Source of the DNA: a virus
DNA: 20,760 nucleotides
IMG/VR virus record: IMGVR_UViG_3300017758_002524
Coordinates: 1 to 20,760 of that record
Strand: one strand, 5' to 3'
How positions within the stretch are numbered: position 1 is the stretch's first letter; every line of letters starts with the position of its first letter. Position numbers and translations under genes: made by a program. Shown one piece after another: positions 2,540 to 18,114 of the stretch. Below the pieces are notes generated by a model, which did not search any database, had not been told where the DNA came from, and saw only the letters and a program-made list of their open reading frames with translations.

Positions 2540-2619
2540 GTCTTGTCAGTAGGCATCAAGACCGATTACAATTTTGAAAGGTCATTTTTACCCCCAGACC
2601 TAACTATGGGGTCATATTG

Positions 2620-2646: not shown

Positions 2647-2649
2647 GTA

Positions 2650-3711
2650 CTAACCTTCTAAAAGACCAGTTACTGCTCCTGTTTGTCCTTGGACTGCTCC
2701 TAATGATACAGAGCTTTGTGTCTGTTGCTGATTCATAATATTCATAACTGTTGACAGTTCTTCTTGTTGACCTAATTCAGTTCCTTCTAAAATATCTTGG
2801 ACTGATGGTACATCTCTACCCTGTGCTAGTGCTTGTTGCTGTATAGTTCTTACCTGTGCAAAACCTCTTCGTGCTTTTTCTACACTTAAACCTAAGTTAC
2901 TTAATTCCTCTGCAGCTTCAATAGATATATCTGTTCCTGCAAGTAATGCTTCTGCACCTATCCTTGCTGTCCTAATTTGCTGATTTAATATTTCGCTAGA
3001 AGTCAATGTACCAGAAACTAAACCTTTACCTATCTCTGGGTCTATAGCACTTGCTATTATTTCTTCATCTGTCAACACTCTGTTAAAGTTTCTTAAATAA
3101 AATTCTTTAACTTGTGGTATAGCGTTTAAAACATTTGTACGAACAGTATTTATTCTTTGACCAAACTCATCTGGTGACACAACATTTTCTATAAGCTGTG
3201 CTCTTCTTTCTTCTGTCAAAATAACATCTGGGTTTATATTAATGTTTTCTAATCTCCTTTTATAAGAGTTTTGTATAGAGGTATACTCTGATTCTGAAAA
3301 TTTTACTGTTGCTCCATCTGCATTTAGATTTCCTGGAAATAAGGTTTTATATAAATCTGTTTGTCTAACTGTGGCTATGGCACTATCAGCATCGTTACCA
3401 AATTCTATATAAGCATTTGTGTATTCTTCAATTAGTTCCTCTGGTAAAGAATTACCAAATTTTAATTTAGCTGAATCTTTAATTCTTTTTTTAGCTTGTG
3501 GTGTTAAGGTCGTGCTGTCAACAGTAGAATTATTTTCATTTGTCGGAGCTGTATAATTAATACCACCAACAGTTGTTTTCGATTCTCTTAATGCTTGTTC
3601 ATAATTAGTTGTATAACCAGATGATTTAAAATTATCTATTGATGCTGTATCATTTTCATCAACTGTATAACCTTTTAAATAATCACTTCTATAATAAGTT
3701 ACTGTTGCCAT
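2650..3711 (-). CDS. Cassette protein of 353 residues, probable internal virion protein, function unknown
   Basis: I do not recognise a defined family with certainty. It is soluble and mostly helical, with no signal peptide. Visible blocks: an N-terminal Tyr/Asp-rich start; IATVRQTDLYKTLFPGN near residues 109-126; a charged helix SEYTSIQNSYKRRLENI near 140; FYLRNFNRVLTDEEIIASAI near 204-222; a helical bundle GAEALLAGTDISIEAAEEL and onward near 250-287; then a Gln-rich tail ending in a GAVQGQTGAVTGLLEG flexible end. An 'R.T..Y...FPG' block followed by 'Y.R..L' helices resembles proteins encoded near the portal/capsid of actinobacterial siphoviruses, thought to be particle components. Its ATG overlaps the preceding stop (TAATG), so translation is coupled to the 483-residue protein. 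It is the last gene before the regulatory gap. Confidence 0.7.
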   Translation of the reverse strand: MATVTYYRSDYLKGYTVDENDTASIDNFKSSGYTTNYEQALRESKTTVGGINYTAPTNENNSTVDSTTLTPQAKKRIKDSAKLKFGNSLPEELIEEYTNAYIEFGNDADSAIATVRQTDLYKTLFPGNLNADGATVKFSESEYTSIQNSYKRRLENININPDVILTEERRAQLIENVVSPDEFGQRINTVRTNVLNAIPQVKEFYLRNFNRVLTDEEIIASAIDPEIGKGLVSGTLTSSEILNQQIRTARIGAEALLAGTDISIEAAEELSNLGLSVEKARRGFAQVRTIQQQALAQGRDVPSVQDILEGTELGQQEELSTVMNIMNQQQTQSSVSLGAVQGQTGAVTGLLEG

Positions 3712-5162
3712 TATCTCTGTGCTCTGACTATACCAGATTGTACACCTATAGATGAAGACATATTATCTGTAAGGTCGTCTAGTACTTTCATATTATTATT
3801 ATTTAGACCGTATGTAGTTAATAATTGGTTTGCTACTGTCTGGTCATTAGCTTGTAAAATTTTAATCCATATATCAGAAGTTTCATTCACTCTTTCACCT
3901 AAAGCGTTAAAAGAAAAGTTACGCCACGGTCCTGCTATTTCTTCATAAGTTAAACTTTCATCGTAATTAGGAAACAAAACTTTTCTCTGTCCTAATAATA
4001 AATTGTTTATAATCATTAAACCATCTGCTTCAGATTCAGCGTTATTATATTTGTCTGCGTATTCAGCTAAAGTAGTATCATCTAATTTGCCATACAATGG
4101 ACCTAGTACTGCTTTGCCTCTATTGCTAACAACACCATATCCTTTTCTAGACTCGCCTAATGTTCCTCTACCGTCTAACCAATTCGTTATGTCTGTTGCT
4201 ACTTTAATACCAGATGAACTGTCAGCTAAAGCAGTTATCTGTGCAGAAGCCAAAGTATCACTTAAAGGTGCTGTGCCTGTTGTTCCTTGTGTTACAGAAT
4301 CTGCAAACCATGTTGCAAAAGAAACTCCGTTGTTGTCAACTATTGTATCTACTCCATCTACTCCTGCATCTATAAGTGCATTTCTCCACAAAACTCTATT
4401 CTCATCTCTGTAAACAGCAGCATCAACAGGTAAATTATCAGCATTAATATCTCTACCTCTTGATAGTATTAACCAATCTATTGTTTCTTGGCTTTGTCTT
4501 GTAAACCAATCAGTATTATTCCATTCATAATCTGCTATGTCTCTATCTTCAACAAGACCTTGAATCCATAACTCCATCATTTCTGGGTCTGACTTTAACC
4601 AAGGTTGCCCTTCTACTGCAGCATTCCATTGTTCTGTAAAACCTATAAAAGGATTTTCTCCTTGTAATATAACGCGTTCTGGTAATTCTTCTATAGCACC
4701 AAAATATATAGCAGTCGTCCACATATCATCACTAGCTGTTTGTACCTGTGGTTTTTCTCTACCACTATAAAAACCATCTAACTGTTGTTGTGTGGCTGTG
4801 TACCTCATGTAAATTTCTGTATTAGGTATTTGCCAAACAACATGCTGTTGACCTTCGTATTCCCATATTTCAGAATTAACAAAACCTTGTGTAGGTGGTA
4901 CTACTGGTACTACTGTTTCTGGTGTTTCTTGTTCTACTGTTTCTTCTTTATCAATCTTTTCTTCTTGGTTAAATAAAAACTCATAAAACCCTGGTTGTAA
5001 TTCTGTAGTTTGCATTTCTTCTAATGTAAAAGGACCGAAACTCTTATATAAATTTGTAGCGTAATTAGTGTAGTCTTCAATATCTAATGATTTACCTGCT
5101 GCAGGTCCATTAGTTTTAATATAGTTATTTAAATTTCTTACAAATAATTCTAATTCATCCAT
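3711..5162 (-). CDS. Cassette protein of 483 residues, probable internal virion protein, function unknown
   Basis: This is a soluble 483-residue protein. Residues 1-65 form a small helical domain. A Glu/Val/Pro-rich linker (about 67-92, with TVEQETPETVVPVVPP) leads to a beta-containing region, EIWEYEGQQHVVWQIPNTEIYM. A Trp-rich central part follows (WFTRQSQETIDWLILSRGRD, near 220-240). The C-terminal part (about 350-455) reads GPLYGKLDDTTLAEYADKYN, then LLLGQRKVLFPNYDESLTYE, EIAGPWRNF and ILQANDQTVANQLLTTYGL. This last 'FPxYDxxLxYxxIAxPW...ND...LLxxxG' pattern looks like one in large structural proteins of actinobacterial and uncultured marine phages, where the role is unknown. The gene is translationally coupled on both sides through TAATG overlaps. 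I infer a virion-internal or adaptor role from position only. Confidence 0.7.
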   Translation of the reverse strand: MDELELFVRNLNNYIKTNGPAAGKSLDIEDYTNYATNLYKSFGPFTLEEMQTTELQPGFYEFLFNQEEKIDKEETVEQETPETVVPVVPPTQGFVNSEIWEYEGQQHVVWQIPNTEIYMRYTATQQQLDGFYSGREKPQVQTASDDMWTTAIYFGAIEELPERVILQGENPFIGFTEQWNAAVEGQPWLKSDPEMMELWIQGLVEDRDIADYEWNNTDWFTRQSQETIDWLILSRGRDINADNLPVDAAVYRDENRVLWRNALIDAGVDGVDTIVDNNGVSFATWFADSVTQGTTGTAPLSDTLASAQITALADSSSGIKVATDITNWLDGRGTLGESRKGYGVVSNRGKAVLGPLYGKLDDTTLAEYADKYNNAESEADGLMIINNLLLGQRKVLFPNYDESLTYEEIAGPWRNFSFNALGERVNETSDIWIKILQANDQTVANQLLTTYGLNNNNMKVLDDLTDNMSSSIGVQSGIVRAQR

Positions 5163-8100
5163 TATCTCGGTGAGACTCCTGTTTCAATATTACTGATATA
5201 ATCTTGTTCTTCTCTTTTATTTTTAAGTTCAGTATACTCTTTAAATACATAATTAATTATAGGTTCACTTATTTTCCATGACAAGGACCAGTCGTCTGAT
5301 ACTTCACCAAATTGTTTAAATGTATCTTTACCCAATTTTCTCCAATCAGCGTTTTCAGTTCCACCAAATATTGCACCACCTGCTTCTGCTACAGTACCTA
5401 AACCTTGATTTACTCTTGCTTTATTTAATGCTTGACCTACATCTACAAGTAATACACCTACTTCATAAGCTACATAAGCAGATAATGCAGGTGCTGCTAT
5501 TGATGCTAAACCTAATGCAGGTGCTAGTCTTCTTAAACTTTCTACTATAACTATATCTCCTGGGTCAAAGACTTGCAAAGCAGATAATCCCTTACCTACT
5601 AATTTTTTAGACGCTTTGTATATATCTTCAAATACTTCTGGTGCTTCGTCAACTAATTCCATCCATTTATTTCTTCCTTCATCTGTAACATATTCGGAAA
5701 CATCTTTAGAACCAAAGCGTGGGTCGTTTGCTTTTGCTGCACCAACTGTTCCTCCTTCAGTTCTCGGCACTATCTTAGCTATATCTTCATCAATAGTATC
5801 TCCCTGCATAATTTTTTCTAAAGTACTTTCGTCTAATTCTATAAATGCACTATCAGGAGCTAAAATTTCCATTTCATTACCATCAATACCACCTCTTATA
5901 CCTAATGCTTCTGTGTCAATTATTTCTGCTGTATTTACCAAATAAGCCTTTACTTTTGGGTCTGCTTCTCCTGCATTTCTACCCATCGAAGATTGATAAA
6001 ACAACATCCCTTCAGATACATTATAAGATTTACTAGCACTACTTATAGGTGTAGCACCACCGTGTACTCCTAATTCACCTGCTCTAAACACAACAATATA
6101 ATCTGTGTCAGGAAGGTATGAATTTTGTACTTTAGCTAAATGTGTTTGCATAATGTTTTTAATTTCAATTTGATTATCTACTACTAAATCGACTACAGTT
6201 TTGTCTACACCTGCTATGTTTAATAAATCAATTTCTTGATTTATAGAGTTAGTATTAAAATCTACACCTGTTTCCATAACAGGTACATCACCATATATAA
6301 CTTTTTTAATAATGTCTGCTTTAGAATCATAGGCATCAAAAGCACCTGAGGTTTCAAAATGATGTAGATAATATATAAATTTAGATAAGTTTGTTCTGTT
6401 AACATCATCAAATTTACTTAATGTTTTATTTTCTAAGGCAGGTATTAATGTATTTTCAATAAAATCCACAGTGTCTGTGTTGTTAAAATAATTTCTAACT
6501 GTGTATCTTGTATATAAAGATTCCCCTATCTTGTTAGTAAAATCTCTTTTATCTGAAAAAACACCAAAAGGATTTGTAGGACGGTCATCTAAATTTTGTA
6601 TTAAAGTAGCTGCTCCTGCATTTGGGTCTATGTTCGGCATCATTTTAATTAGTTGTTGCATTACTGGATGATTTTTAATAGGAGCATTTAATCTAATAAG
6701 TTCGTCTACAAATTCATCTATTTTATATTGTTGTCCAAAAATTGCATCCTCTGGGTTTGTCCAAAAATTTTCTGGGTTTTGGTTAATAGGATAACCATCT
6801 ACCATTTCTACATTGTAATGATAAGAACTTGCTACATTTGTAGGTGTGTCTGTTTCATTTAGTAAAGCATCTATTAAAACTTGATACCTTTCAGGTTTTG
6901 TAAACGCTTCTTCTCTGGCTAATTTGGACACTGTTGCGTATGGGTTATTTTTAATATGTTTATTTGCAACATCAATATTAAATTGTGCATCATCTATTTT
7001 TTCTAATCCATAAGAGTTTTCATTCATAAAAATGTATGATTTACTACCAACATCTTCTATGTCATTGGTATAAACTAATACATCTGCATCTTTAAAATGT
7101 TTTTGTAATGCTTGTGCTGATGTAAAATCATTTGTTATATCGTATGTTTTACCATCAATTTTTATTTGTGTTACATTTGTATATTGATTTACATCACCTG
7201 GTCGTTCTATAAACCCCTGTATAAAATCTGCACTCATTTCTTTTTCTATACCGAACTCTACAAATATTGCTGTATTTGGTATGTTTACTACATTTGCACC
7301 AGGTTTTATGTTTACTTTGTATAAATCGTAACCATTTCTTAAATTAAAATCTCCTGCTTGACTTTTTAAACCTAATTCATCTAAAAATCCTGCAGCAACA
7401 TTTTCATCATCAATAATATTTATAGTAGATGTAGAACTTTTTAAACTATTAGGTTCATTTTCTATATCCCACAATGTTTCACTATATATTTCTTCACCAT
7501 CATATCCATCTAAATCTTGAAATTTTACAGTTAAATCATTATTAGAAGTTTCTGCAACAATGTTGAAATCTGCTTCTACGCCTGTTGGTAATGTAATAGT
7601 TATTTCTCTCGTAACCATACCATCTGTTACTTCATAAAAATCTCCTACTTTTTCAAAACTTACTTGTTCTGATAATTCACTAACTAAATCATTGACTTGT
7701 TCTTGTATAAAATTTAAATTATCATTGGCTATTTTATATAATTGTTCACCACCATAAAATTGACTTGCTCTATCTAAAGCTGCATTGTAAGTTCCTGCGT
7801 GAAACTTTTTATTTACTGTTTCACCTTTAGATATAGAATGATATAACTCTATACCATCATCTACTACATTTGTAGGTGTGATTGCAAAAATGCCTTCGCC
7901 TTTTAATGCTTGTTTATACTCTGTTTCTGATATTGCACCATTATCATATAATTTTTTAACTTTTTGTTCTTCTGTTAAATTTTCAGGAGGTGTTTCTAAG
8001 TCTTTAACTATATCATCAAATTTAGATTCATCACTTATTCTTGGGTCATCAGGACTAACTTCTTCTCCATAAAAATCTGTGTATGTAACTTTGCCATCTG

Positions 8101-8845
8101 CATCAGTAGATTTTATTATCAAGTTTTCTTTTACTTCTGGCAACCAGTCACCTTCTGGAGTCATACCCATTTTCTCCATATTTCGTCTGTGACTTTCATC
8201 TAAGTATGCTTCGTAAGAACCACCAGGAAATAAATTGTTTACAAATTTTATTTTTACATCACTTGCTTTATTGTAAAGAGATTGTTTTTCAAAAAACTTT
8301 TTAAATTTTAATTTTTTTAAATCACCTTCTGTATATTCTCCACTAATTATTTTTGCTTGTTGTATTAATTTTTGTTCTGGTCCTTGTGCATCTGCACCTT
8401 TAAGTGCATATTCTGCCATGTAATGACTAGGTGGAGCATCTATAATTTCATCCAAATCAAAATCATAAACACCTGATGGTGTTCTTCTTGTAACTGAAAT
8501 CATATACTCTATTAAATCATTTGTGTAATATTCATTTCTTTGACCTAGTTGAAAAATTAAATATGGTGATAATCTTTTATTTTCTGGTATAAAATCGTAT
8601 ACATCTATTTCACTATAATGGATATCATTTGCGTCCATGTAATCCATAATTTCGCTAAAAGCTGTATCTTCAATAATTTTTAATTCATCACCACCATAAC
8701 CCATTTGCCTTCCACCAATATAATTCCACAAAAATTTATTATCTATAGGTTCGTCATATCCTTTATTAAATAAAGCAGTGTCTTGTTCCTGCTTTAAAAA
8801 TTCTAGCTCACTATCGTCAGGGATAAAGTTGTCGTCTTCTACCAT
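5162..8845 (-). CDS. Large multidomain protein with ADP-ribosyltransferase-like motifs, putative injected effector
   Basis: The protein has 1227 residues. Near residues 330-530, ELYHSI (His336), FHAGTYNAALDRA (348-360) and, after an insertion, YDLYKVNIKPGANVVNIPN (from about 506) resemble the LYHGT...FGTxxAAxxR...YxVxLxxxNPLxIPD layout of polyvalent-protein ART-like domains. Near 915-1005, VFRAGELG (Arg921), ISSASKS (Ser935-Ser940), VKAYLVN and NEMEILAPDSAF (Glu991 and Glu993, an ExE pair) match the Arg / Ser-x-Ser / ExE order of mono-ADP-ribosyltransferases, although the Arg-to-Ser spacing is short. A hydrophobic stretch at about 1108-1140 could be a membrane segment. ART enzymes move ADP-ribose from NAD+ to a target; T4 Alt does this to host RNA polymerase after entering with the DNA. 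The gene follows the transglycosylase gene via TAATG. Activity and target are inference; the ART calls come from pattern reading. Confidence 0.72.
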   Translation of the reverse strand: MVEDDNFIPDDSELEFLKQEQDTALFNKGYDEPIDNKFLWNYIGGRQMGYGGDELKIIEDTAFSEIMDYMDANDIHYSEIDVYDFIPENKRLSPYLIFQLGQRNEYYTNDLIEYMISVTRRTPSGVYDFDLDEIIDAPPSHYMAEYALKGADAQGPEQKLIQQAKIISGEYTEGDLKKLKFKKFFEKQSLYNKASDVKIKFVNNLFPGGSYEAYLDESHRRNMEKMGMTPEGDWLPEVKENLIIKSTDADGKVTYTDFYGEEVSPDDPRISDESKFDDIVKDLETPPENLTEEQKVKKLYDNGAISETEYKQALKGEGIFAITPTNVVDDGIELYHSISKGETVNKKFHAGTYNAALDRASQFYGGEQLYKIANDNLNFIQEQVNDLVSELSEQVSFEKVGDFYEVTDGMVTREITITLPTGVEADFNIVAETSNNDLTVKFQDLDGYDGEEIYSETLWDIENEPNSLKSSTSTINIIDDENVAAGFLDELGLKSQAGDFNLRNGYDLYKVNIKPGANVVNIPNTAIFVEFGIEKEMSADFIQGFIERPGDVNQYTNVTQIKIDGKTYDITNDFTSAQALQKHFKDADVLVYTNDIEDVGSKSYIFMNENSYGLEKIDDAQFNIDVANKHIKNNPYATVSKLAREEAFTKPERYQVLIDALLNETDTPTNVASSYHYNVEMVDGYPINQNPENFWTNPEDAIFGQQYKIDEFVDELIRLNAPIKNHPVMQQLIKMMPNIDPNAGAATLIQNLDDRPTNPFGVFSDKRDFTNKIGESLYTRYTVRNYFNNTDTVDFIENTLIPALENKTLSKFDDVNRTNLSKFIYYLHHFETSGAFDAYDSKADIIKKVIYGDVPVMETGVDFNTNSINQEIDLLNIAGVDKTVVDLVVDNQIEIKNIMQTHLAKVQNSYLPDTDYIVVFRAGELGVHGGATPISSASKSYNVSEGMLFYQSSMGRNAGEADPKVKAYLVNTAEIIDTEALGIRGGIDGNEMEILAPDSAFIELDESTLEKIMQGDTIDEDIAKIVPRTEGGTVGAAKANDPRFGSKDVSEYVTDEGRNKWMELVDEAPEVFEDIYKASKKLVGKGLSALQVFDPGDIVIVESLRRLAPALGLASIAAPALSAYVAYEVGVLLVDVGQALNKARVNQGLGTVAEAGGAIFGGTENADWRKLGKDTFKQFGEVSDDWSLSWKISEPIINYVFKEYTELKNKREEQDYISNIETGVSPR

Positions 8846-9834
8846 TATCCACCAAGTAATCTAATAGCTTCTTCTATTTCCTTCGACATTGTTTTTCTGG
8901 TATTCGGTTGTTGTTGTTGTATTGGTTCTAGATTTTTCTGTGTTCTTTTTTCATTAATACTAGATACCATTCTATCTATCAACATTTGTATTGGTGTATT
9001 ACCATCTCTTATTTTTTGTGTAATAGGACCTACAGGAATATTACTAAATGCTTCATTACCTTTATCTACTAAACTCATATCCGACCTTAAAGGTCTGTCT
9101 GGTTCCGTAGGTGAGTCAAACATAGGGTTTAATAATTTATAAAAATCTGATTGTTCAAAATCTCTTTCTCTTGGTGGTTTACCAAATTGATTAGTTATCC
9201 CTGCACTTCTTGATGTTGTATCAATTTCTGTATCTTCAGGTATTGTAGTTGTAGTTGTAGGTGGTACTGTCGTAGTTGTAGGTGGAACTGTTGTAGTAAC
9301 AGGAACATCATCAATATTGCCGAAAGATATTTGGTTGTAATTTTTAATGTAATCTACAGCTTTAGTTATCTCTGCATCTAACCCATCTATAAGTACCAAT
9401 TCATTGTCTGCTCCTAATCTTGACATGTTAGGTTTTATATATTTTGTGTATGTCTTCCAAGCATCAAAAGGGTCTGGACCATAAGATTTAGGATTTCTTC
9501 GTCTGTAGTCAACTATATGTGCAGCAAAGGCTGTTGCATACTTAATATCATATTTAACTGATTTAGTAAAATCTTCTAATGACAAAGTCTTACCTTGATT
9601 TTCAAAAAACTCTACAGTCATATTGTCTGGTTTTTCTCCAGTAAAATATCTTGGAGGATTAATTTGCCATAAACCTTTATCATCAATGTCAGTATCACCA
9701 TCTATACCATGTTTAAATTTTGATTCTAAGTAAGCAATAGCAATTAATATTCTAGCATCATCGCCTGGAACCTCTTGTTGTGATAATAATTCTTTAACTT
9801 GTTCTACTGTATATTGCGTTTCTACTTCTTCCAT
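8845..9834 (-). CDS. Virion-associated lytic transglycosylase-like protein with Thr/Pro linker
   Basis: The protein has 329 residues and no signal peptide. Residues about 10-135 show a lysozyme/SLT-like fold: helix DDARILIAIAYLESKFKHG with the probable catalytic Glu37, then KGLWQINPPRYF (GLWQIN 54-59, matching the GLxQI motif), and later PFDAWKTYTKYIKP, matching the closing 'AWxxYxxY' helix. Such domains cut the glycan strands of peptidoglycan. Residues 178-199 are an almost pure Thr/Pro/Val linker, followed by a polar C-terminal region with LLNPMFDSPTEPD, QKIRDGNTPIQMLIDRM and a basic end. No holin neighbours it and it lies among structural genes, so a tail- or core-borne entry enzyme is more likely than a lysis endolysin. 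Start ATG 9834 overlaps the previous stop, with AGGAGAGG just upstream. Confidence 0.8.
   Translation of the reverse strand: MEEVETQYTVEQVKELLSQQEVPGDDARILIAIAYLESKFKHGIDGDTDIDDKGLWQINPPRYFTGEKPDNMTVEFFENQGKTLSLEDFTKSVKYDIKYATAFAAHIVDYRRRNPKSYGPDPFDAWKTYTKYIKPNMSRLGADNELVLIDGLDAEITKAVDYIKNYNQISFGNIDDVPVTTTVPPTTTTVPPTTTTTIPEDTEIDTTSRSAGITNQFGKPPRERDFEQSDFYKLLNPMFDSPTEPDRPLRSDMSLVDKGNEAFSNIPVGPITQKIRDGNTPIQMLIDRMVSSINEKRTQKNLEPIQQQQPNTRKTMSKEIEEAIRLLGG
9245..9298. repeat. In-frame tandem repeat encoding the Thr/Pro linker
   Basis: Two adjacent 21-nt units (9251-9271 and 9272-9292, beginning gtagttgtaggtgg) differ at two positions, and partial copies extend on both sides. On the minus strand each unit encodes a TVPPTTT-type heptad, seven codons per unit. 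Repeat slippage could change linker length without a frameshift. Confidence 0.75.
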
Positions 9835-10871
9835 TAGCCTCTCCTCATTGGTGTACTAGATTGTGCCGAAGATAGACCTGCCATATTTTTTTGTATTCTA
9901 TAAAAAGTATCATCTTCTATATCTGCTTGTCTACTTACTTCTTCTCTAGGTGCAAAGACTTCATCTTGTATATCTTCTGTGTCTGTCAAGATACTTGTGT
10001 CAGGTTCTTCAGCAGGAGTACCTTCTACAAATCCTGCAAACTCTCCTGTATCTGTAGACAATAAGGTATCTGGTACAGCAGGAGCTAAGTTATCAACGCT
10101 TTCTAAAAATTGAGCAGCAGGTCCACTAGCAAATTTGTTACTAAAATAATTTGTTTCATATTCAGACAAAGGTGCACCTTTTCGTAATTCTACTTCTTTC
10201 AAAAAACCGTTATAGAAATCTTCTAAGTCTTCGTTTTTATATTCATAAGTAGTCGTGTTACCTGCTTGATACGCTTGGGAAAATTCTCCCATCATTGTAG
10301 TTGATGCAACCCAAGAAAGTTTACCATTATTATCCATAGAAAAGTCCATAGCTTTTTTGATGCCTTTCATGGTTTCAGCATCTAAATTAGCACCGTAAGT
10401 TTTACTTAAATTTATTAGACCTGCTTTAGCTAAAGCATTTTTAAGAGGTATTCTTTGTGCTTTATCTAAAGCAGTCCATTGATTCTTTATATCTTTTGTG
10501 TAATATATATTTAAAAAAGCATCTGATGTTCCAAACAAATCTCTTCTTTCAACTTGGTATTTATCTGATGTTAAAAACTCCTCTGCAGAAATAGGTTCAA
10601 CAATAGGGTTTCCAGTATTTGCTTCATATTCTATGTTACCTGCATCGTCTTTTTTGTATACACTGTATTCTTTTTGAAATCCTGTTCCTAATAATTTGTT
10701 AGGGTCTGAAAACATAGACATATTTAATAGATTTTCGTATATGTCACCACCAGTTTCATCCATACCGATTGGAGCATTGTCACCTTGTGGAGGCATAAGG
10801 TCTAATGGACCTACACTTTTTTGACCATCTTTCTCATCTGTTATGTTTTCAGGCATAAAGAAATTAACCAT
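9834..10871 (-). CDS. Cassette protein of 345 residues, probable virion component, function unknown
   Basis: I recognise no named family. The protein is acidic and soluble. The N-terminal 60 residues are polar and Pro/Gly-rich (MPENITDEKDGQ, LDLMPPQGDNAPIG). The middle holds a helical core (about 115-190): IYYTKDIKNQWTALDKAQ, LKNALAKAGLINLSKTYGAN, LDAETMKGIKKAMDFSM and GKLSW. This 'L..AGL...YG..D.ET..A...' plus 'W' layout looks like a helical module that recurs in large phage virion proteins. A disordered acidic tail (about 262-330; DTSILTDTEDIQDEVF) precedes a basic PMRRG end. It lies between the 2301-residue giant and the transglycosylase, coupled to both by TAATG. GGAG sits 10 nt before the ATG; ATG 15 nt further in is a possible alternative start. 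Confidence 0.68.
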   Translation of the reverse strand: MVNFFMPENITDEKDGQKSVGPLDLMPPQGDNAPIGMDETGGDIYENLLNMSMFSDPNKLLGTGFQKEYSVYKKDDAGNIEYEANTGNPIVEPISAEEFLTSDKYQVERRDLFGTSDAFLNIYYTKDIKNQWTALDKAQRIPLKNALAKAGLINLSKTYGANLDAETMKGIKKAMDFSMDNNGKLSWVASTTMMGEFSQAYQAGNTTTYEYKNEDLEDFYNGFLKEVELRKGAPLSEYETNYFSNKFASGPAAQFLESVDNLAPAVPDTLLSTDTGEFAGFVEGTPAEEPDTSILTDTEDIQDEVFAPREEVSRQADIEDDTFYRIQKNMAGLSSAQSSTPMRRG

Positions 10872-13800
10872 TAATCTATTACTCCAAATCTATCTACTTC
10901 ATTAACTAACACTTCATCGTATACTACCATAAACAATGGGTATTTTTCTATAATCTTAAAGGCTTGTGTTTGCAATTCTAGACGAACAGCATCTGCACCA
11001 GGTGATGTATTGTTTTTTAAATAATTAACTGCTTGTTCTATATTAGGATAATTTTTGTTTTTTCTGATAGCATCTAACGCTCTTGTTCGTTCAGCGAAAT
11101 ATTCTTGTAAGTAACCAGTTAATTCAAACTGTGCAAACTCAGGATGTTCTGCTGCTCTAGTTAAATAATCTATCATTATATCATTGTCTAATCGTTCAGC
11201 AGTTTCGCCACCAAGAACACTGTTGTATGCTTCTGACTTACCATAAGCTATAGGAAACATAGACGCTAACCAAGCATCAATCTTTGCGTTTTCTGCTTTT
11301 ACAATGTTTGCAAAATTAGAATCAGGTTTATATTTTACTGTTGCTTCAAGTTCTCTTAGCTTATCTTCTTTCATAGCTTTACCAATTACAGAAGCTAAAA
11401 ACTTTTGTACATCTGCAAACATTTCTTGTTCGTTTTTAGGTGTTACTAGCTCTAAAGGTAAAGATTCGTAACCACTAAAATCTAATAAACCCTCATCTAG
11501 ATTTCTAGAAAAGTAAGTTAATACTGGTCCAAAATCTTTTGCAAGTTCTGGGTGTGATAACACAAAATCATATTCTAATGTTGTTCTTGGTACTCTACCT
11601 GCTTCAGATACAGCTTTACCTTTTAGTTGCAAACCTGCAGATGTAAACCCTTGTATACCATATTTATCTAAACCTAATAGTCTTACAACTTCTACTAATG
11701 CGTAGTATTCACCTTGTGTTGGTCCTAATGTGGCTACCCATTGGCTTCTCATTGATTGGTAAAAACCATGTATTGCTGCAAGTTCAACCATATTGTTATA
11801 AAAAATACCAGAATCAAAACCTTCTTCATCGTACCATTTTTTAAAAGTTGCAGGATTACCTTCTATCGCATAAAGAACATTTAGCTTTGGTGCAAACGGA
11901 CTTATAAATCTATCGTATGCCATTAATGTATAAATGTTTTCTCTTACCTGCTCGGTAATAGTTTCTAATGCTTCAAAATCATCAGCTAACTCTGGGTGTA
12001 ACTGTGCTGATATTTGAAAGGCTTTTGTTGTTGCACCTAACCATATATCTTCATCTACACCTGCTATGTTAAAATCTTTTGCCATAGCGTTAAACCAGTT
12101 CTGAGCTACTGAAGGTATAGCACTTCTTATAAATTCTTCTGGTATATCTAATAAATCTATTTCACCTTTGCCACTGAAAGGTAAGTTATAACCTGCCATG
12201 ATATATCGTTCTACAAATCTTTTAGCTGATGGCTTATCTCTTAATAAAAAACCTACTGGCATACTCATACCTGCACCTAAAGATGGTAGTACTCCTGCAC
12301 CACCTACGCCTAAAGCACTTAGTCTAAGACTTCTTTTAGCGTAAACTCTTTCACTAGGCACTGATGCGTCTTCAGAATACTCGCCAAAACCATTTGATTT
12401 TGCATACGAATCTAACGGTGTACCACCTGTCGGTATAAAAAGATAATTGTCACCAAACTTATCTTTAAAGATAACATTATTTTCTACACCTTTTCTATAA
12501 CCTTCTGCAATTTGATACGCTGCTTTTACATTGTTTTTACTTAACAAGTAATACCTACCTGCGTATTCTCTCCATGCTTCAAAAAAAGCAAAACCACTTC
12601 TGTAGGCTTGTGCAAAATATCCACGCTCTGTTAAATTAAACAATAGATTAGTCTGTGCTTCCATAGCAAACTCTATTGCTCTTTGGTGTATGTCTTCAAA
12701 ACTCATATTTCTTACAATATTTGCTCTAACATCATTCATGTCTAATACAGATGTATAACTCCACTCGTTCATATTTGGCATTATGGTATTGTCAGCAGGT
12801 TTAAATATTTCCATAGTCTTTTCTTTTCTATTAAAGATGCCTTTAATATTTAATTTTTCAAATATTTTGTCTGCAACAATAGCTTTTTCTGTAACATCTA
12901 AGCCTTGTCTTTCTTTTAAATATCCAGGGTTTGTTACTATTGTTTCTTCACCTAATGCTTTTACTTGATTATCTGTTAGTAATTTCTTTCCTCTTAATCT
13001 AAGTGTGTTATACACAGCACCATTGTTAATTATTTCATAAGTATCATCATATTTAAATATACTTTCAATAATCTCGTCACCTTCTTTTCTTAAATACACT
13101 TCACCAAAAGATATTTGGTCAGCAGCTAATCCTAAATACTTAGCTTTGTCATACGCTTTTTTACTAGCATTGATAGTTGTATCTTGTACACCACGATTAA
13201 TTTTAACTGACACATCTAAAAACCATTGTCCTCTAGCTTCATCCCATCTACCACCTAGTACATGGTCGGTCAATCTTAACTTATCTCCATTATCAAGTAT
13301 GTATGATTTCAATACATTCGGTGTTAAAGAATTTTTACCACTTACAACTAATGTTCTGGTGTTGTATGGAGATACAAACAAACTAGCAACTTTACCCCAA
13401 GATTCTTGATTGCCTAAATCTAGGCTAAAACCTTCTGGATTTTCTCGTACAAATCTATATACACTATCAGTGAGTTCTTCGTTTAATGCGTTCTTAGGTA
13501 CAGCTATTCTTACTGGTTGATTTAAAACTTTTTCTATAGTTTTTCTACCTACATCAAATGTTTGTTCACCTGTGTATTTAGCTTTTTGCGTTTTACCTTT
13601 GGTAGATGCTTGGAAATTTTTACGGATTTGTAATAAATTAGGTTTACTACCAGATAAACCTAATATTTTTTCTAACCCTTTTTTGTTAGCACCAGGTTCT
13701 GAAAGATACTTAACTGCGTCTTTAATGATTAATGCTACATCTTCTGCACCATAACCAATGTCATAGGCATTTAATAAAACATCTTGTACAATTTTTTCAT

Positions 13801-16800
13801 TAGCAAATTGTCCATTGTAAATTATTTCATCTTTATTAAATCTAGATATGTAAGTACCTACTTTACTGTCATCAAAACCTAATCTTCCTTCAGCTATTTT
13901 ATTAGCAGCTCCATAAACTTGTGCTTCTGCTTTTTGTACATCAGTAGTAAAAGTTATACTGTCGGCATTCCGAGCATTTGTAGATAAATAATCTACAGTT
14001 TTTTGTCCTTGTTCTGTAAACAAAGTAACAACAAACTCTGTAACACCATTCGCAGTGTTCTTAGAAATAATAGGTTTTATGTTAACATTTAAAACTTCGT
14101 CATAATCAGCAAGTGTATTATCTGCTTTCTTTATATTATCTTTTACAGATTTAATAACTTCTTTATTTAAATTTACTGCTGTGTCTGGGTCCAAATGAAC
14201 TTTTAACATTTCTTCTAATGCAGATTTTTGACCAAAATTTGCAAAAGAGTCTACTGCTAAATTGTATGCTTGTTTAATAAATGGTATACGAATAGCAGTA
14301 CCTTCTCCTTGTGATGTAGCAAAAAACATAGAGTCTAATAAATTTCTAATAACACCTTTTTGTTCAGCTAAACTTTTTTTATCTCCCTTTGGAAATGGTA
14401 TCTCTGCAGGTACTTTTTCTTTTACCTCATTGTAAAGTTTTATAATTTTTCTTGATGCTTGTTCTTGTAGTTCTGGTTGCAATATATCCAAGTTTCTTAA
14501 ATTAATGTTGCCTATTTTTCCATCAGCAATGACATCAAGAAGTTTTAAACTACCACCTGTGTAATTATCTATTGATTGCGAATAATGTGTTGCTAGTCTT
14601 ATAAAATCTTCGTCAGTTTTTATTGAACCTGCAGCAGCATTTCTACTAGCAGGTCCTCTTTTAATAAGACCATCATTATTTTTCTGAATTATTTTTCTTA
14701 TTGATTCTGTATTTTTGAGATAGTCAGCCATTTGGTCTATAGTAAAACCTTTTCTTTTCATGCCTGAAACAATATTGGCTAATGGGTCGTCTATATATCT
14801 ATCTAAAAAATACACAAATGCTTTTGGATGTTTAACGGTATCTACAATAGTAACGAGGTCATGTCCTGTAATGTTCATTAATTGATTATCAACAAATTTA
14901 ACATCTGCAGAAAAAAGTTGTGCTAATTCTGGTGTGCCAAATTGTTGTGAATCAGACAATATGCCCAAAGCCTTTCTTACTGATTTAGGAATAACATCTT
15001 CTAGTAACTCAGTAGCTTTATTGTCTAAAGGTTTTGTAGTTCTATAAGGACCTACCATAGTTGTATCTGGATTTATCTTAAATACTCTTGCAAGAAGTCC
15101 TTCTGAATCATTAAGCATTAATTTAAAATAAGTTACAAGACCATCTAGAGGTCCTCGTGTACCTAGAAATTTATTTTTAATAATTGCATCAGTTATAAGT
15201 TTTAATGGATATGACAACCTGCCTAATAAAAAAGCAGGGTATTGAAAATTTCTCATATATCCAAAAAATAATCTATCAAAACCTCCTGAAAAACCTTCTA
15301 CACTTTTAAACAAAACATTAGGGTTTTCAAAATCTGGTTTAATGTCTGATAACAATTCATTTAAATGTGAGCCTTCACGCCAAAAATCTACTTCTTCTCC
15401 TTCATCTGCAGCTTTACGCACTACTTCAAATATATCTTCGTTACCCTCTGCATTTAAATATTTGCTTCTAAGTCTTCTTTTGTTACTTGTTGCTTTAATC
15501 AATCCTTGTATATCAGGACCATGTATAGTTAAATTTTTTAATTGACTGTATAGCTCTAAAGAGTTTTGTGTTAGTTGTATCATTTGTTCTTCACTTGCTA
15601 CATCTGAAAATTGTTTTTGTGTTATTATATCTACTTCATCTAGAGGATAAAATTCTGGATTTCTACTTGGTGACATTGGTTTAGCAAATGTATCATCAAA
15701 ACCTTGTGCGTCATTGTTATAAAATTTATTAAAGAAATTATCTATTTCATTATCTGTTAAACCAAAAGTAGTTTTAAGTTGTAAACCTATTTCACCAGAT
15801 ACAAGTTTGTCCTTAAATATACTTTTAGCTTCCATTGTTTTTCCATCTTTCAATGCGTTATAAAACTCTGTGCTTAATTCACCTAATCTTTGTTCTGGTA
15901 CAGAACCTAGATAACCATATCTTGTAAAATATCTTAATGATTCTTGTATGTCATTTAAATCTGCAGGTTTAGTTTTAGGTAATTTAATATCTTGTGCTAA
16001 CATTTGGTCTCTAAAACTTCCACCTCTTCTTGCTGTAGTTGTTATACCATCATCTAACGGTGTGTCTAATGCAGCTAATAAATTTTCATTTAATATTTTC
16101 GATTGTAAATGTTTGTTTTTACCTCTACCTATCCATCGACCACCATAATACAAATCTGCTACATAACCATTTTGTATACCGTCTTGCATAATATTTATAA
16201 CATCATTTACTGTAGTATCTGCATTTTGTATTTTAAAAGCAAAGTCTGGATGCAAACCTGCATTTATTAATTTTAATCCAACAGGTACACCATTGTCCTT
16301 AGCATTTACTAATATTTCTGCTAAACCCTCAAAAACATCTATATTTTCATCATAAATATTTTGTAGTGTTTTACCTTTATCAAGTTCCTCTGGTAGAGAT
16401 TTAGCTAAAATAGTTAAGGCTTCATCCATATTTTTAAGAGGTTGTCTTACAATTCCTTGACCAGGAACAACAATATTAGCTAAGTCTAAATAAATATATT
16501 TACCAACATTTATAGTACCTGCAAAAAATCCTGCCATACTATATTCTTTTTTGTAACCTATATCTTGTATTAAATTATTTCTTTGTACAGTAGCTTCATC
16601 TAATATTTCATAATATGTTGTACCATTAATTCGACCTTCGCTTAATAAATCTTGTGCTTGTGATTGTACTAATAAATATTGATTATCTACAAACTCTGTA
16701 ATCTGGTTTCCTGGACCATAACTTGCACTTAAATTACCTGTTAAAGAATATGCTAGACCATCTCCTATTGTTACTGGTAAACCTACTGTCATGTAATCTT

Positions 16801-17776
16801 GTGCAAAACTTCTGTTCTCGTCAAACTCAGGAGCTGAAGATAACATAGCTGCAAAACCTGTTTGTTCTGTATCAGGGTTCATAATATCATTTATAGTCTT
16901 TAAATATAAACCTGTTTTTTCAGTAAAAGTTAATGGTCTTCCTAATACTTGTTCTTCTTGTTCTAAATTTTCTGCTAAGTAATCTGGGAATATTTCTAAA
17001 TAAATATCTAAATCTGTTTTTCTAACTAGAGGATTTCCTTCATCATCTACTAAACCTCGTGCAATCATAAATTGTTTTGCTTGTGTTGAAGCATCATAAT
17101 AAGGTAAACCATTTTTATATTGTGTTTTTTTTTGTGACCTGTAAATTTGTTGTGCTTCAAAATGTGCTTTAAGAGCAGCTCCAATAGGTGTGTTGTTATC
17201 TTTTAGTCTTTCGTAACCTGCAATACTTATAGAATCTTCTAATGTTTTACCATCTTCATTTAATTGTTTTTCTAATGCTGCTGTATATTCTAAATTATAA
17301 TTATAAGCAGCCCTATCAGCATCTTGAATTGCAGCTTCTAAAAATATGCGAGAGCCATTAAAAAAATAAGAACCCATTGTTTCTTTAAAATTTCTTAAAT
17401 TTTCTTTAACTGCTGCTCCTAGGGTACCAAGAGTATCTGCATTTAATTGAAGAAACAGTTGTGTTTGTGCATTGTAATGTTGTTGTACTTCTTCATTTAC
17501 TTTTGCACTTCTATTATTTTGATTTAATAATTCTTCGTTTTTAGTTTCTGACCAAATTTCTAAATATTGCTCGTCAGTCAAGTTCATGTCCACTGCTGCA
17601 AGTAATAGTTCTGGTGTTTCGTTAGGTGTAAGTGCTTCTAATTGTTCATACCTATTAGCTAATTCTTTAGCTTTAGGACCTAATGCCTGTTCTGTATTAT
17701 TTAATTGTGTATTGTACTGTTGATTTTTTTTATAACTTTCATTCCAGTTGTCACCCCATTCTGTCCAGATTGACAT
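10871..17776 (-). CDS. Giant 2301-residue protein, putative internal virion/ejection protein
   Basis: This single frame fills a third of the window. It has no signal peptide and is mostly helical and polar. Landmarks: charged N-terminal helices (1-330); RNFQYPAFLLGRLSYPLKLI near 840-865, like the 'RP.Y..R......R' helix of giant actinophage proteins; a mixed segment about 1440-1565 with FVRENPEGFSLDL, LVVSGKNSLT, LGGRWDEARGQWFLDVS and ISFGEVYL, resembling a domain shared by large phage and mobile-element proteins; LLFNLTERGYFAQAYRSGFA then FFEAWREYAGRYYLL (about 1705-1745); and a Gly-rich hydrophobic stretch near 1815-1846 (LGVGGAGVLPSLGAGMSM). No polymerase, protease or lysozyme signature was found. 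Size and place next to the portal genes recall T7 gp16-like or N4 vRNAP-like injected proteins, but no homology is claimed. ATG 17776 is a TAATG overlap with weak AGTAGG upstream. Confidence 0.75.
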   Translation of the reverse strand: MSIWTEWGDNWNESYKKNQQYNTQLNNTEQALGPKAKELANRYEQLEALTPNETPELLLAAVDMNLTDEQYLEIWSETKNEELLNQNNRSAKVNEEVQQHYNAQTQLFLQLNADTLGTLGAAVKENLRNFKETMGSYFFNGSRIFLEAAIQDADRAAYNYNLEYTAALEKQLNEDGKTLEDSISIAGYERLKDNNTPIGAALKAHFEAQQIYRSQKKTQYKNGLPYYDASTQAKQFMIARGLVDDEGNPLVRKTDLDIYLEIFPDYLAENLEQEEQVLGRPLTFTEKTGLYLKTINDIMNPDTEQTGFAAMLSSAPEFDENRSFAQDYMTVGLPVTIGDGLAYSLTGNLSASYGPGNQITEFVDNQYLLVQSQAQDLLSEGRINGTTYYEILDEATVQRNNLIQDIGYKKEYSMAGFFAGTINVGKYIYLDLANIVVPGQGIVRQPLKNMDEALTILAKSLPEELDKGKTLQNIYDENIDVFEGLAEILVNAKDNGVPVGLKLINAGLHPDFAFKIQNADTTVNDVINIMQDGIQNGYVADLYYGGRWIGRGKNKHLQSKILNENLLAALDTPLDDGITTTARRGGSFRDQMLAQDIKLPKTKPADLNDIQESLRYFTRYGYLGSVPEQRLGELSTEFYNALKDGKTMEAKSIFKDKLVSGEIGLQLKTTFGLTDNEIDNFFNKFYNNDAQGFDDTFAKPMSPSRNPEFYPLDEVDIITQKQFSDVASEEQMIQLTQNSLELYSQLKNLTIHGPDIQGLIKATSNKRRLRSKYLNAEGNEDIFEVVRKAADEGEEVDFWREGSHLNELLSDIKPDFENPNVLFKSVEGFSGGFDRLFFGYMRNFQYPAFLLGRLSYPLKLITDAIIKNKFLGTRGPLDGLVTYFKLMLNDSEGLLARVFKINPDTTMVGPYRTTKPLDNKATELLEDVIPKSVRKALGILSDSQQFGTPELAQLFSADVKFVDNQLMNITGHDLVTIVDTVKHPKAFVYFLDRYIDDPLANIVSGMKRKGFTIDQMADYLKNTESIRKIIQKNNDGLIKRGPASRNAAAGSIKTDEDFIRLATHYSQSIDNYTGGSLKLLDVIADGKIGNINLRNLDILQPELQEQASRKIIKLYNEVKEKVPAEIPFPKGDKKSLAEQKGVIRNLLDSMFFATSQGEGTAIRIPFIKQAYNLAVDSFANFGQKSALEEMLKVHLDPDTAVNLNKEVIKSVKDNIKKADNTLADYDEVLNVNIKPIISKNTANGVTEFVVTLFTEQGQKTVDYLSTNARNADSITFTTDVQKAEAQVYGAANKIAEGRLGFDDSKVGTYISRFNKDEIIYNGQFANEKIVQDVLLNAYDIGYGAEDVALIIKDAVKYLSEPGANKKGLEKILGLSGSKPNLLQIRKNFQASTKGKTQKAKYTGEQTFDVGRKTIEKVLNQPVRIAVPKNALNEELTDSVYRFVRENPEGFSLDLGNQESWGKVASLFVSPYNTRTLVVSGKNSLTPNVLKSYILDNGDKLRLTDHVLGGRWDEARGQWFLDVSVKINRGVQDTTINASKKAYDKAKYLGLAADQISFGEVYLRKEGDEIIESIFKYDDTYEIINNGAVYNTLRLRGKKLLTDNQVKALGEETIVTNPGYLKERQGLDVTEKAIVADKIFEKLNIKGIFNRKEKTMEIFKPADNTIMPNMNEWSYTSVLDMNDVRANIVRNMSFEDIHQRAIEFAMEAQTNLLFNLTERGYFAQAYRSGFAFFEAWREYAGRYYLLSKNNVKAAYQIAEGYRKGVENNVIFKDKFGDNYLFIPTGGTPLDSYAKSNGFGEYSEDASVPSERVYAKRSLRLSALGVGGAGVLPSLGAGMSMPVGFLLRDKPSAKRFVERYIMAGYNLPFSGKGEIDLLDIPEEFIRSAIPSVAQNWFNAMAKDFNIAGVDEDIWLGATTKAFQISAQLHPELADDFEALETITEQVRENIYTLMAYDRFISPFAPKLNVLYAIEGNPATFKKWYDEEGFDSGIFYNNMVELAAIHGFYQSMRSQWVATLGPTQGEYYALVEVVRLLGLDKYGIQGFTSAGLQLKGKAVSEAGRVPRTTLEYDFVLSHPELAKDFGPVLTYFSRNLDEGLLDFSGYESLPLELVTPKNEQEMFADVQKFLASVIGKAMKEDKLRELEATVKYKPDSNFANIVKAENAKIDAWLASMFPIAYGKSEAYNSVLGGETAERLDNDIMIDYLTRAAEHPEFAQFELTGYLQEYFAERTRALDAIRKNKNYPNIEQAVNYLKNNTSPGADAVRLELQTQAFKIIEKYPLFMVVYDEVLVNEVDRFGVID

Positions 17777-18114
17777 TAAAACCTACTTCGTACTTTATAT
17801 CCATAATTGTTTTGTATAATCTCTTTAAGAATTTGTGTATTAGTACCGTCTGGCATTTGTATATTTTGTTCTACACCTAGAGCATTGCCTGGTTCGTTAG
17901 TTCTTTCTGTATTTCTAAAAACATCTTGCATTTCACCTATGTTAGGTATACCACCTGTTGTTGTTGTTTCTCTTTTAACAGCGTCAATACCTGCTTGTTG
18001 TTGTGCTCTGCCACCATACTCATCATCAGGTATAGCTTTCAAATCTGCATAAGCACCATCTAATTTTGTATCTGTATTTTGGGTTAACTTACTTGGTTTT
18101 CTACCACCTGGCAT
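17776..18114 (-). CDS. Small conserved-type protein following the portal, function unknown
   Basis: I set the start at ATG 18114-18112 (112 residues, MPGGRKPSK...) because the strong site AAGGAG (18124-18129) is 9 nt upstream of it. The in-frame ATGs at 18120 and 18123 lie only 3 and 0 nt from that site. The protein is polar and probably disordered. It begins with a basic GGRKPSK, continues LKAIPDDEYGGRAQQQAGID, and has GEMQDVFRNTERTNEPGNAL in the middle, then a basic end YGYKVRSRF. Short proteins with a 'YGxRxxxxxxQ...FxxTxRPxEP' layout sit just after the portal gene in many actinobacterial and marine phages; the resemblance is remembered, not searched. It overlaps the 79-residue gene by 14 nt and the giant gene by 1 nt. 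Role unknown, perhaps portal-associated. Confidence 0.65.
   Translation of the reverse strand: MPGGRKPSKLTQNTDTKLDGAYADLKAIPDDEYGGRAQQQAGIDAVKRETTTTGGIPNIGEMQDVFRNTERTNEPGNALGVEQNIQMPDGTNTQILKEIIQNNYGYKVRSRF

What the first reader, a model, noticed from the sequence alone, without database searches (positions are those of the whole stretch)
2650..17776. 15 kb cassette of six coupled genes, over 5,000 residues, between portal and scaffold
Phage head modules usually place scaffold or protease and capsid genes close to the portal gene. Here six large frames (2301, 345, 329, 1227, 483, 353 residues) intervene, with a peptidoglycan-cutting domain and ADP-ribosyltransferase-like motifs among them. 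Seen: order, size, strand and coupling. Known: phages such as T7, N4 and T4 carry internal proteins that leave the particle with the DNA. Inferred: this cassette encodes a virion-internal ejection and effector set, possibly for a marine actinobacterial host. It is the best candidate in the window for an undescribed system.
Basis: partly seen in the sequence, partly recalled or inferred. Interest (0 to 1): 0.78.

Follow-up and report, generated by a model that had tools for sequence, protein, structure and literature searches.

The report
Swappable phage ejection and effector cassette
A little-known group of uncultured bacterial viruses carries, between two capsid genes, a block of six linked genes that probably makes the machinery pushed into the host together with viral DNA, including one interchangeable cargo protein, and related viruses swap this block as a unit.

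Summary
In detail: six same-strand frames (2301, 345, 329, 1227, 483, 353 aa) lie between portal and scaffold, all joined by the same TAATG overlap. The order portal-giant-~345-peptidoglycan hydrolase-[optional slot]-483-353-scaffold-capsid recurs in many IMG/VR contigs. Portal, giant, 483 and 353 are, by profile comparison, homologous to proteins in the same order in Streptomyces Beephvirinae, of which Abafar is a podovirus by EM. So the layout has a known but uncharacterised precedent. Two things look new. (1) The 1227-aa gene is an optional cargo slot (occupied in 43 of 70 contigs): constant hydrophobic C-terminal tail, shuffled N-terminal domains (ART fold, HPr, methyltransferase). The hydrolase is swapped too (lysozyme, SLT, M23; NlpC/P60 in Streptomyces phages). 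(2) The cassette is exchanged as a unit: phages with portals up to 96% identical carry giants that blastp cannot align; DNA similarity stops near portal codon 555 and resumes around the gap before scaffold. Best reading: a podovirus ejection set with an injected multidomain effector, probably in phages of actinobacteria. Presence in the particle, injection and enzyme activity are inferred, not shown.

The parts
20113..20760 (-). terminase large subunit, cut by the end of the record (215 aa left; 645 aa in relative L005)
   Evidence: full-length relative matches 164 phage records, Streptomyces Beephvirinae and ct2KA10 among the best
18333..20111 (-). portal protein, 592 aa; left border of the exchanged block lies near its codon 555
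   Evidence: hhalign to Beephvirinae portal 99.5% E 1.6e-22; border:
17776..18123 (-). 115-aa frame coupled to the giant gene by TAATG
   Evidence: relatives in the same place
10871..17776 (-). giant protein, 2301 aa; homologue of Beephvirinae gp9; likely main ejection (core) protein
   Evidence: hhalign of a 50-member giant alignment to Beephvirinae giant 99.3% E 3e-20
12737..14176 (-). residues about 1201-1680 of the giant: segment of the ~2300-aa giants, mostly absent from the 1475-1932-aa giants
   Evidence: well-predicted part of the model, no solved fold found
9834..10871 (-). 345-aa protein, conserved in the window's clade
   Evidence: no significant match to Beephvirinae gp10
8845..9834 (-). 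329-aa peptidoglycan hydrolase with exchangeable catalytic part
   Evidence: SLT E 0.0031 below cut-off; family at this position: lysozyme, SLT, M23
9652..9768 (-). SLT/lysozyme-like stretch, residues 23-61 of the 329-aa protein
5162..8845 (-). 1227-aa cargo (slot) protein: optional, mosaic, candidate injected effector
6959..7861 (-). ART-fold domain 1, residues about 329-629 of the 1227-aa protein
   Evidence: structure comparison, first six rows are toxins titled or recalled as ART-fold, Z 6.0-7.1; conserved blocks in L101-L103
5807..6100 (-). ART-like domain 2, residues about 916-1013: R ... SxS/T-K-S ... GNExE
   Evidence: motif kept in window, L093, L101, L102, L103; motif recalled, no fold match obtained for this part
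5171..5725 (-). constant C-terminal tail (slotC), residues 1041-1225
   Evidence: alignment A3; found in slot proteins of 43 contigs
5438..5527 (-). hydrophobic stretch in the tail, residues 1107-1136
   Evidence: most hydrophobic window lies in the tail in 38 of 38 slot proteins
3711..5162 (-). 483-aa protein; shares a domain with Beephvirinae gp12 ('glycosylase'), outside its SLT part
   Evidence: hhalign 94.4% E 8.8e-8, columns 242-448 to 186-364
2650..3711 (-). 353-aa protein, homologue of Beephvirinae gp13
   Evidence: phrog_8424 E 1.8e-29, the same PHROG as FlowerPower gp13; hhalign 99.0% E 6.8e-18
2452..2649 (.). 198-base gap before scaffold: right border of the exchanged block; tRNA array in Beephvirinae at this place
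1993..2451 (-). probable scaffold protein, 152 aa
   Evidence: position
812..1933 (-). major capsid protein, SU10 type
   Evidence: Pfam E 4.2e-43
2..385 (-). start of a ~337-aa protein related to FlowerPower gp43, which matches the Pfam SU10 adaptor

Best explanation
The cassette encodes the internal (ejection) proteins of a short-tailed phage together with a swappable cargo. Shown: five core genes (giant, 345, hydrolase, 483, 353) are kept in order between portal and scaffold; giant, 483 and 353 have homologues in the same order in Streptomyces podoviruses; the hydrolase position is filled by unrelated peptidoglycan-cutting folds; a sixth gene is optional and consists of changing N-terminal domains on a constant hydrophobic tail; the block is exchanged as a unit. 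Inferred: the proteins are loaded into the procapsid beside the portal (hence the place between portal and scaffold), leave with the DNA, the giant and its partners form the conduit, the hydrolase opens the wall, and the constant tail loads the cargo and/or anchors it in the membrane, so that its enzymatic domains (in the window two ADP-ribosyltransferase-like domains) meet the host cytoplasm at the first moment of infection and act on host proteins, nucleotides or defences.
For: Order recurs. Homology to Beephvirinae with off-diagonal controls. Abafar, a member, has a 16-nm tail by EM (PMC11536984, passages). Hydrolase swap: among 47 proteins at this position Pfam finds Phage_lysozyme in 14, SLT in 10, SLT_3 in 7, M23 in 1 (a protein may match more than one model); NlpC/P60 E 1.7e-29 in FlowerPower gp11 and SLT in gp12. 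No frame above 646 aa outside the cassette in contig bases ~2600-40058 of the 41,372-base relative. Slot: occupied in 43 of 70 contigs; for 37 slot proteins the N-terminal parts cover each other by half in 132 of 666 pairs against 467 of 666 for the tail, 632 of 666 for 483, 595 of 595 for the giant's end. Domains: HPr in 9 of 36, methyltransferase in 2 of 36, HPr above Pfam's cut-off in L131 and seen against solved HPr chains, E 0.0011. ART fold. Tail hydrophobic maximum in 38 of 38. Exchange as a unit.
Against: No particle proteomics; virion location is inferred from genome position and homology only, and no virion analysis of Beephvirinae gp9-gp13 was found. The window's own SLT hit is below cut-off. 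No sequence match to T7, P22 or N4 internal proteins. The giant model (pLDDT 69) has no solved-fold match. The ART model is weak (mean pLDDT 57), Foldseek finds nothing below E 0.001 and Z values of 6-7 lie in the range the tool calls common. 345, 329, scaffold and capsid show no significant profile match to their Beephvirinae counterparts. Hydrophobicity of the tail is modest (median 1.49; 22 of 38 at 1.4 or more).
Confidence: 0.62

Rival explanations
1. The cassette is a tail module in an unusual place: the giant is a tape measure, 345/483/353 are baseplate or tail-tip proteins, and the hydrolase is a tail-tip lysin.
For: Annotators call the gp11/gp12 homologues 'minor tail protein' in Dennebes and Stella. 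Tape measures are also long and can carry hydrolases. BFVD lists some tape-measure rows, but only at E 0.21 or worse.
Against: Closest annotated relatives with this order are podoviruses (Abafar). No major tail tube gene was recognised after the capsid; what follows is a SU10-adaptor relative, a ~650-aa protein and fibre-like repeats. The block lies before scaffold and capsid. The giant model holds well-predicted alpha/beta regions.
Confidence: 0.1
2. The core is an ejection set, but the 1227-aa slot protein is not injected: it is made late and acts inside the producing cell (against competing phages or host defences), or is a structural decoration.
For: The gene is dispensable (27 of 70 contigs lack it). 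No delivery was observed. Its tail could be a membrane anchor in the producing cell.
Against: It is co-translated within the core operon (TAATG on both sides), its tail is more constant than its domains, and multidomain phage proteins with ART domains near virion genes are argued to be injected (PMC5512222, passages).
Confidence: 0.2
3. Cassette types I and II are not exchanged; the giant simply diverges much faster than the portal.
For: Ejection proteins are known to diverge faster than portals (PMC8954989, section on conservation). Types I and II are still homologous by profile (hhalign 100%, E 2.9e-82 against the mixed set, 97.6% E 4.1e-12 against type I alone).
Against: Type II portals do not form one clade (AU p 8e-5; 14 type II of 36 rows). 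L050 and L083 share 94.4% DNA identity over 5.7 kb ending inside the portal gene, then giants with no blastp match. Similarity returns near the gap before scaffold. The tree is a quick one and the portal itself may have recombined.
Confidence: 0.1

Closest known systems
Beephvirinae (Streptomyces podoviruses: FlowerPower, Dennebes, Stella, Manuel, Immanuel3, Abafar), genes portal to capsid
   Same: Order portal, small frames, giant (~1640 aa), ~275 aa, hydrolase, 430 aa, ~390 aa, scaffold, capsid; portal, giant, 483/gp12 and 353/gp13 homologous.
   Different: Beephvirinae have no slot gene, fuse hydrolase domains to the gp11/gp12 C-terminal domain, carry 14-22 annotated tRNA genes in the gap before scaffold, and have another capsid family (Phage_capsid_3) than the window (SU10_MCP).
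T7/P22-type ejection proteins (gp14, gp15, gp16)
   Same: Operon of large, fast-changing proteins with a movable peptidoglycan-hydrolase domain (PMC8954989 section on conservation).
   Different: No sequence match found; block lies between portal and scaffold; giant of 1475-2388 aa; optional multidomain cargo. That review describes ejection genes in podoviruses of Gram-negative hosts and their absence from phi29-like phages.
Polyvalent proteins of phages (PMC5512222, passages)
   Same: Several unrelated enzymatic domains in one long protein encoded beside virion genes; ART is their commonest protein-modifying domain.
   Different: Here one fixed slot with a constant C-terminal tail; no Pfam polyvalent-domain hit; HPr domain in the cargo.
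MuF polymorphic toxins and VIP2-MuF fusions (PMC5576092 abstract and one section; PMC7302621 passages)
   Same: Phage-encoded variable toxin-like domains, ART among them, in the portal-capsid region.
   Different: No MuF domain found; here the constant part is C-terminal and the variable part N-terminal, the reverse of MuF toxins.
Giant genes of Microbacterium podoviruses, cluster EK and Burro (PMC7302621 passages; PMC8281081 whole text)
   Same: Actinobacterial podoviruses with a very large gene next to portal, thought virion-associated.
   Different: One >4,400-aa gene just before the portal gene (Burro 27 and 28), capsid candidate directly after portal; not compared here by sequence.

Membership tests
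Beephvirinae-type structural module | homologous portal | tested here: met
   hhalign 99.5% E 1.6e-22; other proteins 0.8% or less in that row
Beephvirinae-type structural module | homologous giant protein after portal | tested here: met
   99.3% E 3e-20 with 50 giants, controls 0.4% or less; with the narrower 24-member set only 6.8%, with type II giants alone 27.6%
Beephvirinae-type structural module | homologues of gp12 and gp13 in order | tested here: met
   94.4% E 8.8e-8 and 99.0% E 6.8e-18
Beephvirinae (as taxon) | same capsid family | tested here: not met
   SU10_MCP against Phage_capsid_3; hhalign 0.2%
T7/P22 ejection proteins | sequence family of gp14/gp15/gp16 or P22 counterparts | tested here: not met
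   no such Pfam or PHROG family matched
T7/P22 ejection proteins | peptidoglycan hydrolase in the set | tested here: met
   window protein itself below cut-off
T7/P22 ejection proteins | proteins inside the particle, ejected with DNA | not testable with these tools
   needs particle proteomics and ejection assays
Podovirus (short tail) | short tail, no tape measure | tested here: inconclusive
   no tape-measure-sized frame in the read part of the 41-kb relative; Abafar short-tailed by EM; no particle of this group seen
Polyvalent proteins | two or more unrelated domains in one protein beside virion genes | tested here: met
   for relatives: ParB-like and methyltransferase-like (L096), ART-like, methyltransferase-like (L101-L103), HPr and HDTFGH (L137, L142, L163); in the window two ART-like domains
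Polyvalent proteins | published polyvalent domain families | tested here: inconclusive
   no Pfam match of that kind; the authors' own profiles were not available
MuF polymorphic toxins | N-terminal MuF domain | tested here: not met
   no Pfam match in the cassette proteins
ADP-ribosyltransferase superfamily | ART fold, domain 1 | tested here: met
   six toxin chains first, Z 6.0-7.1, 105-129 aligned residues, rmsd 3.9-5.0, next unrelated row Z 5.3; moderate, Foldseek alone not significant
ADP-ribosyltransferase superfamily | R-S-E motif, domain 2 | tested here: inconclusive
   R, SxS/T and ExE kept in 5 sequences; motif recalled; no fold match for this part
N4-like virion RNA polymerase | RNA polymerase domain in the giant | tested here: inconclusive
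   no Pfam or PHROG match; N-terminal half of the giant not modelled

The most novel reading that the evidence does not exclude
A transferable delivery module of phages of single-membrane bacteria: a wholesale-exchanged ejection apparatus with a dedicated cargo slot, in which a constant C-terminal tail loads and delivers whatever enzymatic domains are fused in front of it (ADP-ribosyltransferases, HPr-like phosphocarrier domains, methyltransferases), so that related phages change host-takeover effectors and wall-opening enzymes by swapping parts or the whole block.
Probability: 0.35. Interest if true: 0.82.

Novelty: new variant of a known kind. Interest (0 to 1): 0.62.

Why it matters
Ejection proteins have been studied in phages of Gram-negative hosts, and the review seen here notes their absence from phi29-like phages of Gram-positive hosts. 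If these phages infect actinobacteria, as portal and capsid matches suggest, a 5,000-residue ejection set would show that such machines also serve single-membrane hosts. The slot offers a natural test of what loads a protein into a capsid and carries it into a cell: one constant tail, many cargos. The block exchange with definable borders shows that phages treat host entry plus effector as one transferable unit. The cultured Streptomyces podoviruses make the core testable now.

Tried and rejected
Portal, 353, giant, 483 and 1227 were searched by tblastn in the phage collection: only the portal of these matched; so homology had to be shown by profiles. Direct profile comparison of the narrow giant set with the Beephvirinae giant was not significant (6.8%); the broader set was. 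Profiles of 345, 329, scaffold and capsid against Beephvirinae counterparts gave nothing. Solved-structure searches by sequence with the slot, 483 and giant alignments gave nothing convincing; the tail alignment hit only a designed helical barrel (E 0.00063, not counted as a passing stretch) and a weak regulator row. PADLOC gave nothing for six slot proteins. Rfam and tRNA scans of the window were empty, as was a tRNA scan of 11 loci. HExxH, a sign of an N4-like self-processing peptidase, occurs in 3 of 50 giants, not in the window's, and in no slot protein of 38: self-processing not supported. Promoter-like sites are no more than in shuffles (77 against 87); terminator-like sites 14 against 7, none in the 198-base gap.

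Host: 29 of 31 portal matches are Streptomyces phages and 23 of 25 capsid matches are phages of actinobacteria, but terminase matches are spread, Klebsiella and Escherichia phages included; WhiB was found in 1 of 25 records searched, not in the window's relative; among genome contigs one relative lies in an Actinomycetota MAG and one in a Flavobacteriaceae MAG. So actinobacteria are likely, not shown. 'Marine' is recalled from sample numbers and rests on no call.

Rows dropped before counts: one search left out L143 (N-terminus cut) and kept near-copies L132 and L158; one search left out portals under 540 aa, Beephvirinae, L007, L010, L011, L121, L023 (profile hit but no blastp hit to the giant) and identical portals, and counted L016, whose giant is cut, as type II; one search printed 71 contigs with 28 empty slots, but L048 and L130 are one contig, hence 43 of 70 and 27 of 70; some of the 70 are near-copies. 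The portal scan kept the best 80 of 549 relatives, so the picture is of the nearest relatives.

Not-in-print statements rest on searches only.
Full report
What is there. The window is a whole virus record of 20,760 bases. All main genes run on the minus strand: a cut terminase, portal, a 115-aa frame, six large frames (2301, 345, 329, 1227, 483, 353 aa), a 152-aa frame in the place of a scaffold, an SU10-type capsid protein, and the start of an adaptor-like gene. Nothing in Rfam and no tRNA was found in the window.

It is a conserved unit. Scans of IMG/VR with the giant, the portal, the 353-aa protein and a profile of the 483-aa protein brought in loci whose maps show one order: portal, small frame(s), giant of 1475-2388 aa, a ~345-aa frame, a hydrolase, an optional slot gene, a 483-like gene, a 353-like gene, scaffold, capsid. 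The portal scan alone found 549 relatives, of which the best 80 were kept.

It has a named precedent. Outside uncultured viruses, the portal matches only Streptomyces phages of the Beephvirinae (29 of 31 records; the other two are the unassigned ct2KA10). These phages carry portal, small frames, a giant of 1635-1648 aa, ~275 aa, a hydrolase, 430 aa, ~390 aa, a tRNA array, scaffold, capsid. Profile comparison, with every cassette protein tested against every Beephvirinae protein as control, gives portal-portal 99.5% (E 1.6e-22), 353-gp13 99.0% (E 6.8e-18) and 483-gp12 94.4% (E 8.8e-8). The giant is significant only with a broad set of 50 giants: 99.3%, E 3e-20, controls at or below 0.4%; narrower sets gave 6.8% and 27.6%. 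345, 329, scaffold and capsid are not significant. Abafar, one of these phages, has a 16-nm tail and a 60-nm head by electron microscopy (PMC11536984, passages). In the read part (about bases 2600-40058) of the 41-kb relative no frame outside the cassette exceeds 646 aa, so there is no tape-measure-sized gene there.

Two proteins of the block are interchangeable. At the hydrolase position, 47 proteins gave Phage_lysozyme in 14, SLT in 10, SLT_3 in 7 and M23 in 1; FlowerPower has NlpC/P60 in gp11 and SLT in gp12, and gp11 and gp12 share their C-terminal domain (100%, E 1.7e-62), the domain to which the 483-aa protein aligns. Different wall-cutting folds at one place argue that wall cutting is the job of that place. 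The slot gene is present in 43 of 70 contigs and cleanly absent in 27, with the hydrolase then followed directly by the 483-like gene (L048 and L130 counted once). Its products (426-1624 aa) share a C-terminal tail, while N-terminal parts differ: half-coverage in 132 of 666 pairs, against 467 for the tail, 632 of 666 for 483, 572 of 630 for 353, 625 of 630 for 345, 595 of 595 for the giant's last 430 residues, and 179 of 630 for the hydrolase. Cargo domains include HPr (9 of 36 by Pfam, best E 7.9e-6; over the curated cut-off in L131 and under it in L142; against solved HPr chains E 0.0011), methyltransferases (2 of 36, under the cut-off in the two shown), ParB-like GNHRLRA and HDTFGH stretches (names by eye). 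In 38 of 38 slot proteins the most hydrophobic window lies in the tail, though 16 of 38 stay under 1.4.

The window's cargo. Residues about 329-629 form a domain whose first six structural neighbours are toxin chains (ParT, two Xre-RES entries, VPA0770, MbcT; Z 6.0-7.1), followed by an unrelated row at 5.3 and diphtheria toxin at 5.1; that RES toxins have the ART fold is recalled. The model is weak (pLDDT 57), Foldseek's best E is 0.15, and the tool warns that Z under 8 can be a common arrangement; the consistency of the rows is the argument. Residues about 916-1013 keep an R, an SxS/T and an ExE in five sequences, the recalled signature of a second class of ART. Tails and domain 2 had no fold match.

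The block is exchanged as a unit. Among loci with portals 78-88% identical to the window's, giants fall into two types: type I (28-56% identical to the window's giant) and type II (2001-2120 aa where complete, no or only short blastp matches). Types I and II are distant homologues by profile, type II being nearer to the giants of remoter phages. On the portal tree the types are interspersed: starred branches force three changes and one clade for type II is rejected (36 rows, p-AU 8e-5; quick tree). L050 and L083 have portals 95.9% identical and 94.4% DNA identity over 5,728 bases that ends inside the portal gene, while their giants give no blastp hit. Over 260 type I x type II pairs DNA similarity ends at portal codon 555 (median; 5-95%: 542-703). 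Two type II contigs extended show the rest: 558-303-1819-414-360-scaffold-capsid and 481-441-1454-405-443-scaffold-capsid. Against six type I loci, similarity returns for L185 between 20 and 97 bases after the 353-like gene, before scaffold, and for L184 from 119 bases before to 60 bases after that gene's end. Both type II slot genes lack a hit to the tail profile at E 0.01, but their most hydrophobic stretch also lies near the C-terminus, with similar ..YE/AE.. patterns by eye.

How it most likely works. The place between portal and scaffold, the podovirus relatives, the hydrolase, the giant and the variable cargo fit an ejection set loaded at the portal vertex, and a cargo that is carried in by it. 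Shown: homology, order, modularity, exchange. Inferred: presence in the particle, ejection, the role of the tail, enzyme activity, host. Rivals are a displaced tail module (0.1), a cargo that acts in the producing cell (0.2) and divergence without exchange (0.1).

What is known. T7- and P22-type sets are movable mosaics with swapping hydrolase domains (PMC8954989, abstract and one section); polyvalent proteins (PMC5512222, passages) and MuF toxins (PMC5576092, abstract and one section) are the nearest known effector kinds; Microbacterium podoviruses have a >4,400-aa gene beside portal, and VIP2-MuF fusions are predicted virion parts (PMC7302621, passages; PMC8281081, whole text). This block fails the sequence test for T7/P22 proteins and the MuF test, and is not Beephvirinae as a taxon because the capsid differs. 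I file it as a new variant of a known kind.

Noticed in passing
L007/L010 (contig IMGVR_UViG_3300050343_000097): In this nearly identical copy the giant gene is split into frames of 2022 and 319 aa (one base longer), a real frameshift or an assembly error.
   Followed up: no
L002, L003, L118, L119, L120, L122, gap between gp13 and scaffold: Beephvirinae carry 14-22 annotated tRNA genes exactly in the gap that is the right border of the exchanged block in the IMG/VR relatives; an insertion hot spot may be old.
   Followed up: partly
L131:7999-8253 and nine other slot proteins with the string GLHARP: HPr-like phosphocarrier domain with the GLHARP site inside a probable phage virion cargo; unusual and untested.
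   Followed up: partly
L182/L183 (PBPX01000048.1, MAG of an Actinomycetota bacterium, 54,151 bases): A relative's portal occurs at both ends of this contig, as in a circularly permuted or repeated viral assembly binned with an actinobacterial MAG.
   Followed up: partly
window 9247-9297 and 18343-18381: Short tandem repeats encode a TTTTVPP linker between the two parts of the 329-aa hydrolase and a GGPPQ tail of the portal.
   Followed up: no
window 12737-14176 (giant residues about 1201-1680): A well-predicted segment is mostly absent from the shorter giants; BFVD matches to the modelled half of the giant include several stand-alone 120-139-aa phage proteins, the matching part not being given.
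   Followed up: partly
L121 (OX376640.1, Caudovirales sp. ct2KA10): Unassigned phage with a reduced version: portal, 1764-aa giant-sized frame, gp12-like and gp13-like genes, scaffold, capsid, all nearer to Beephvirinae.
   Followed up: partly
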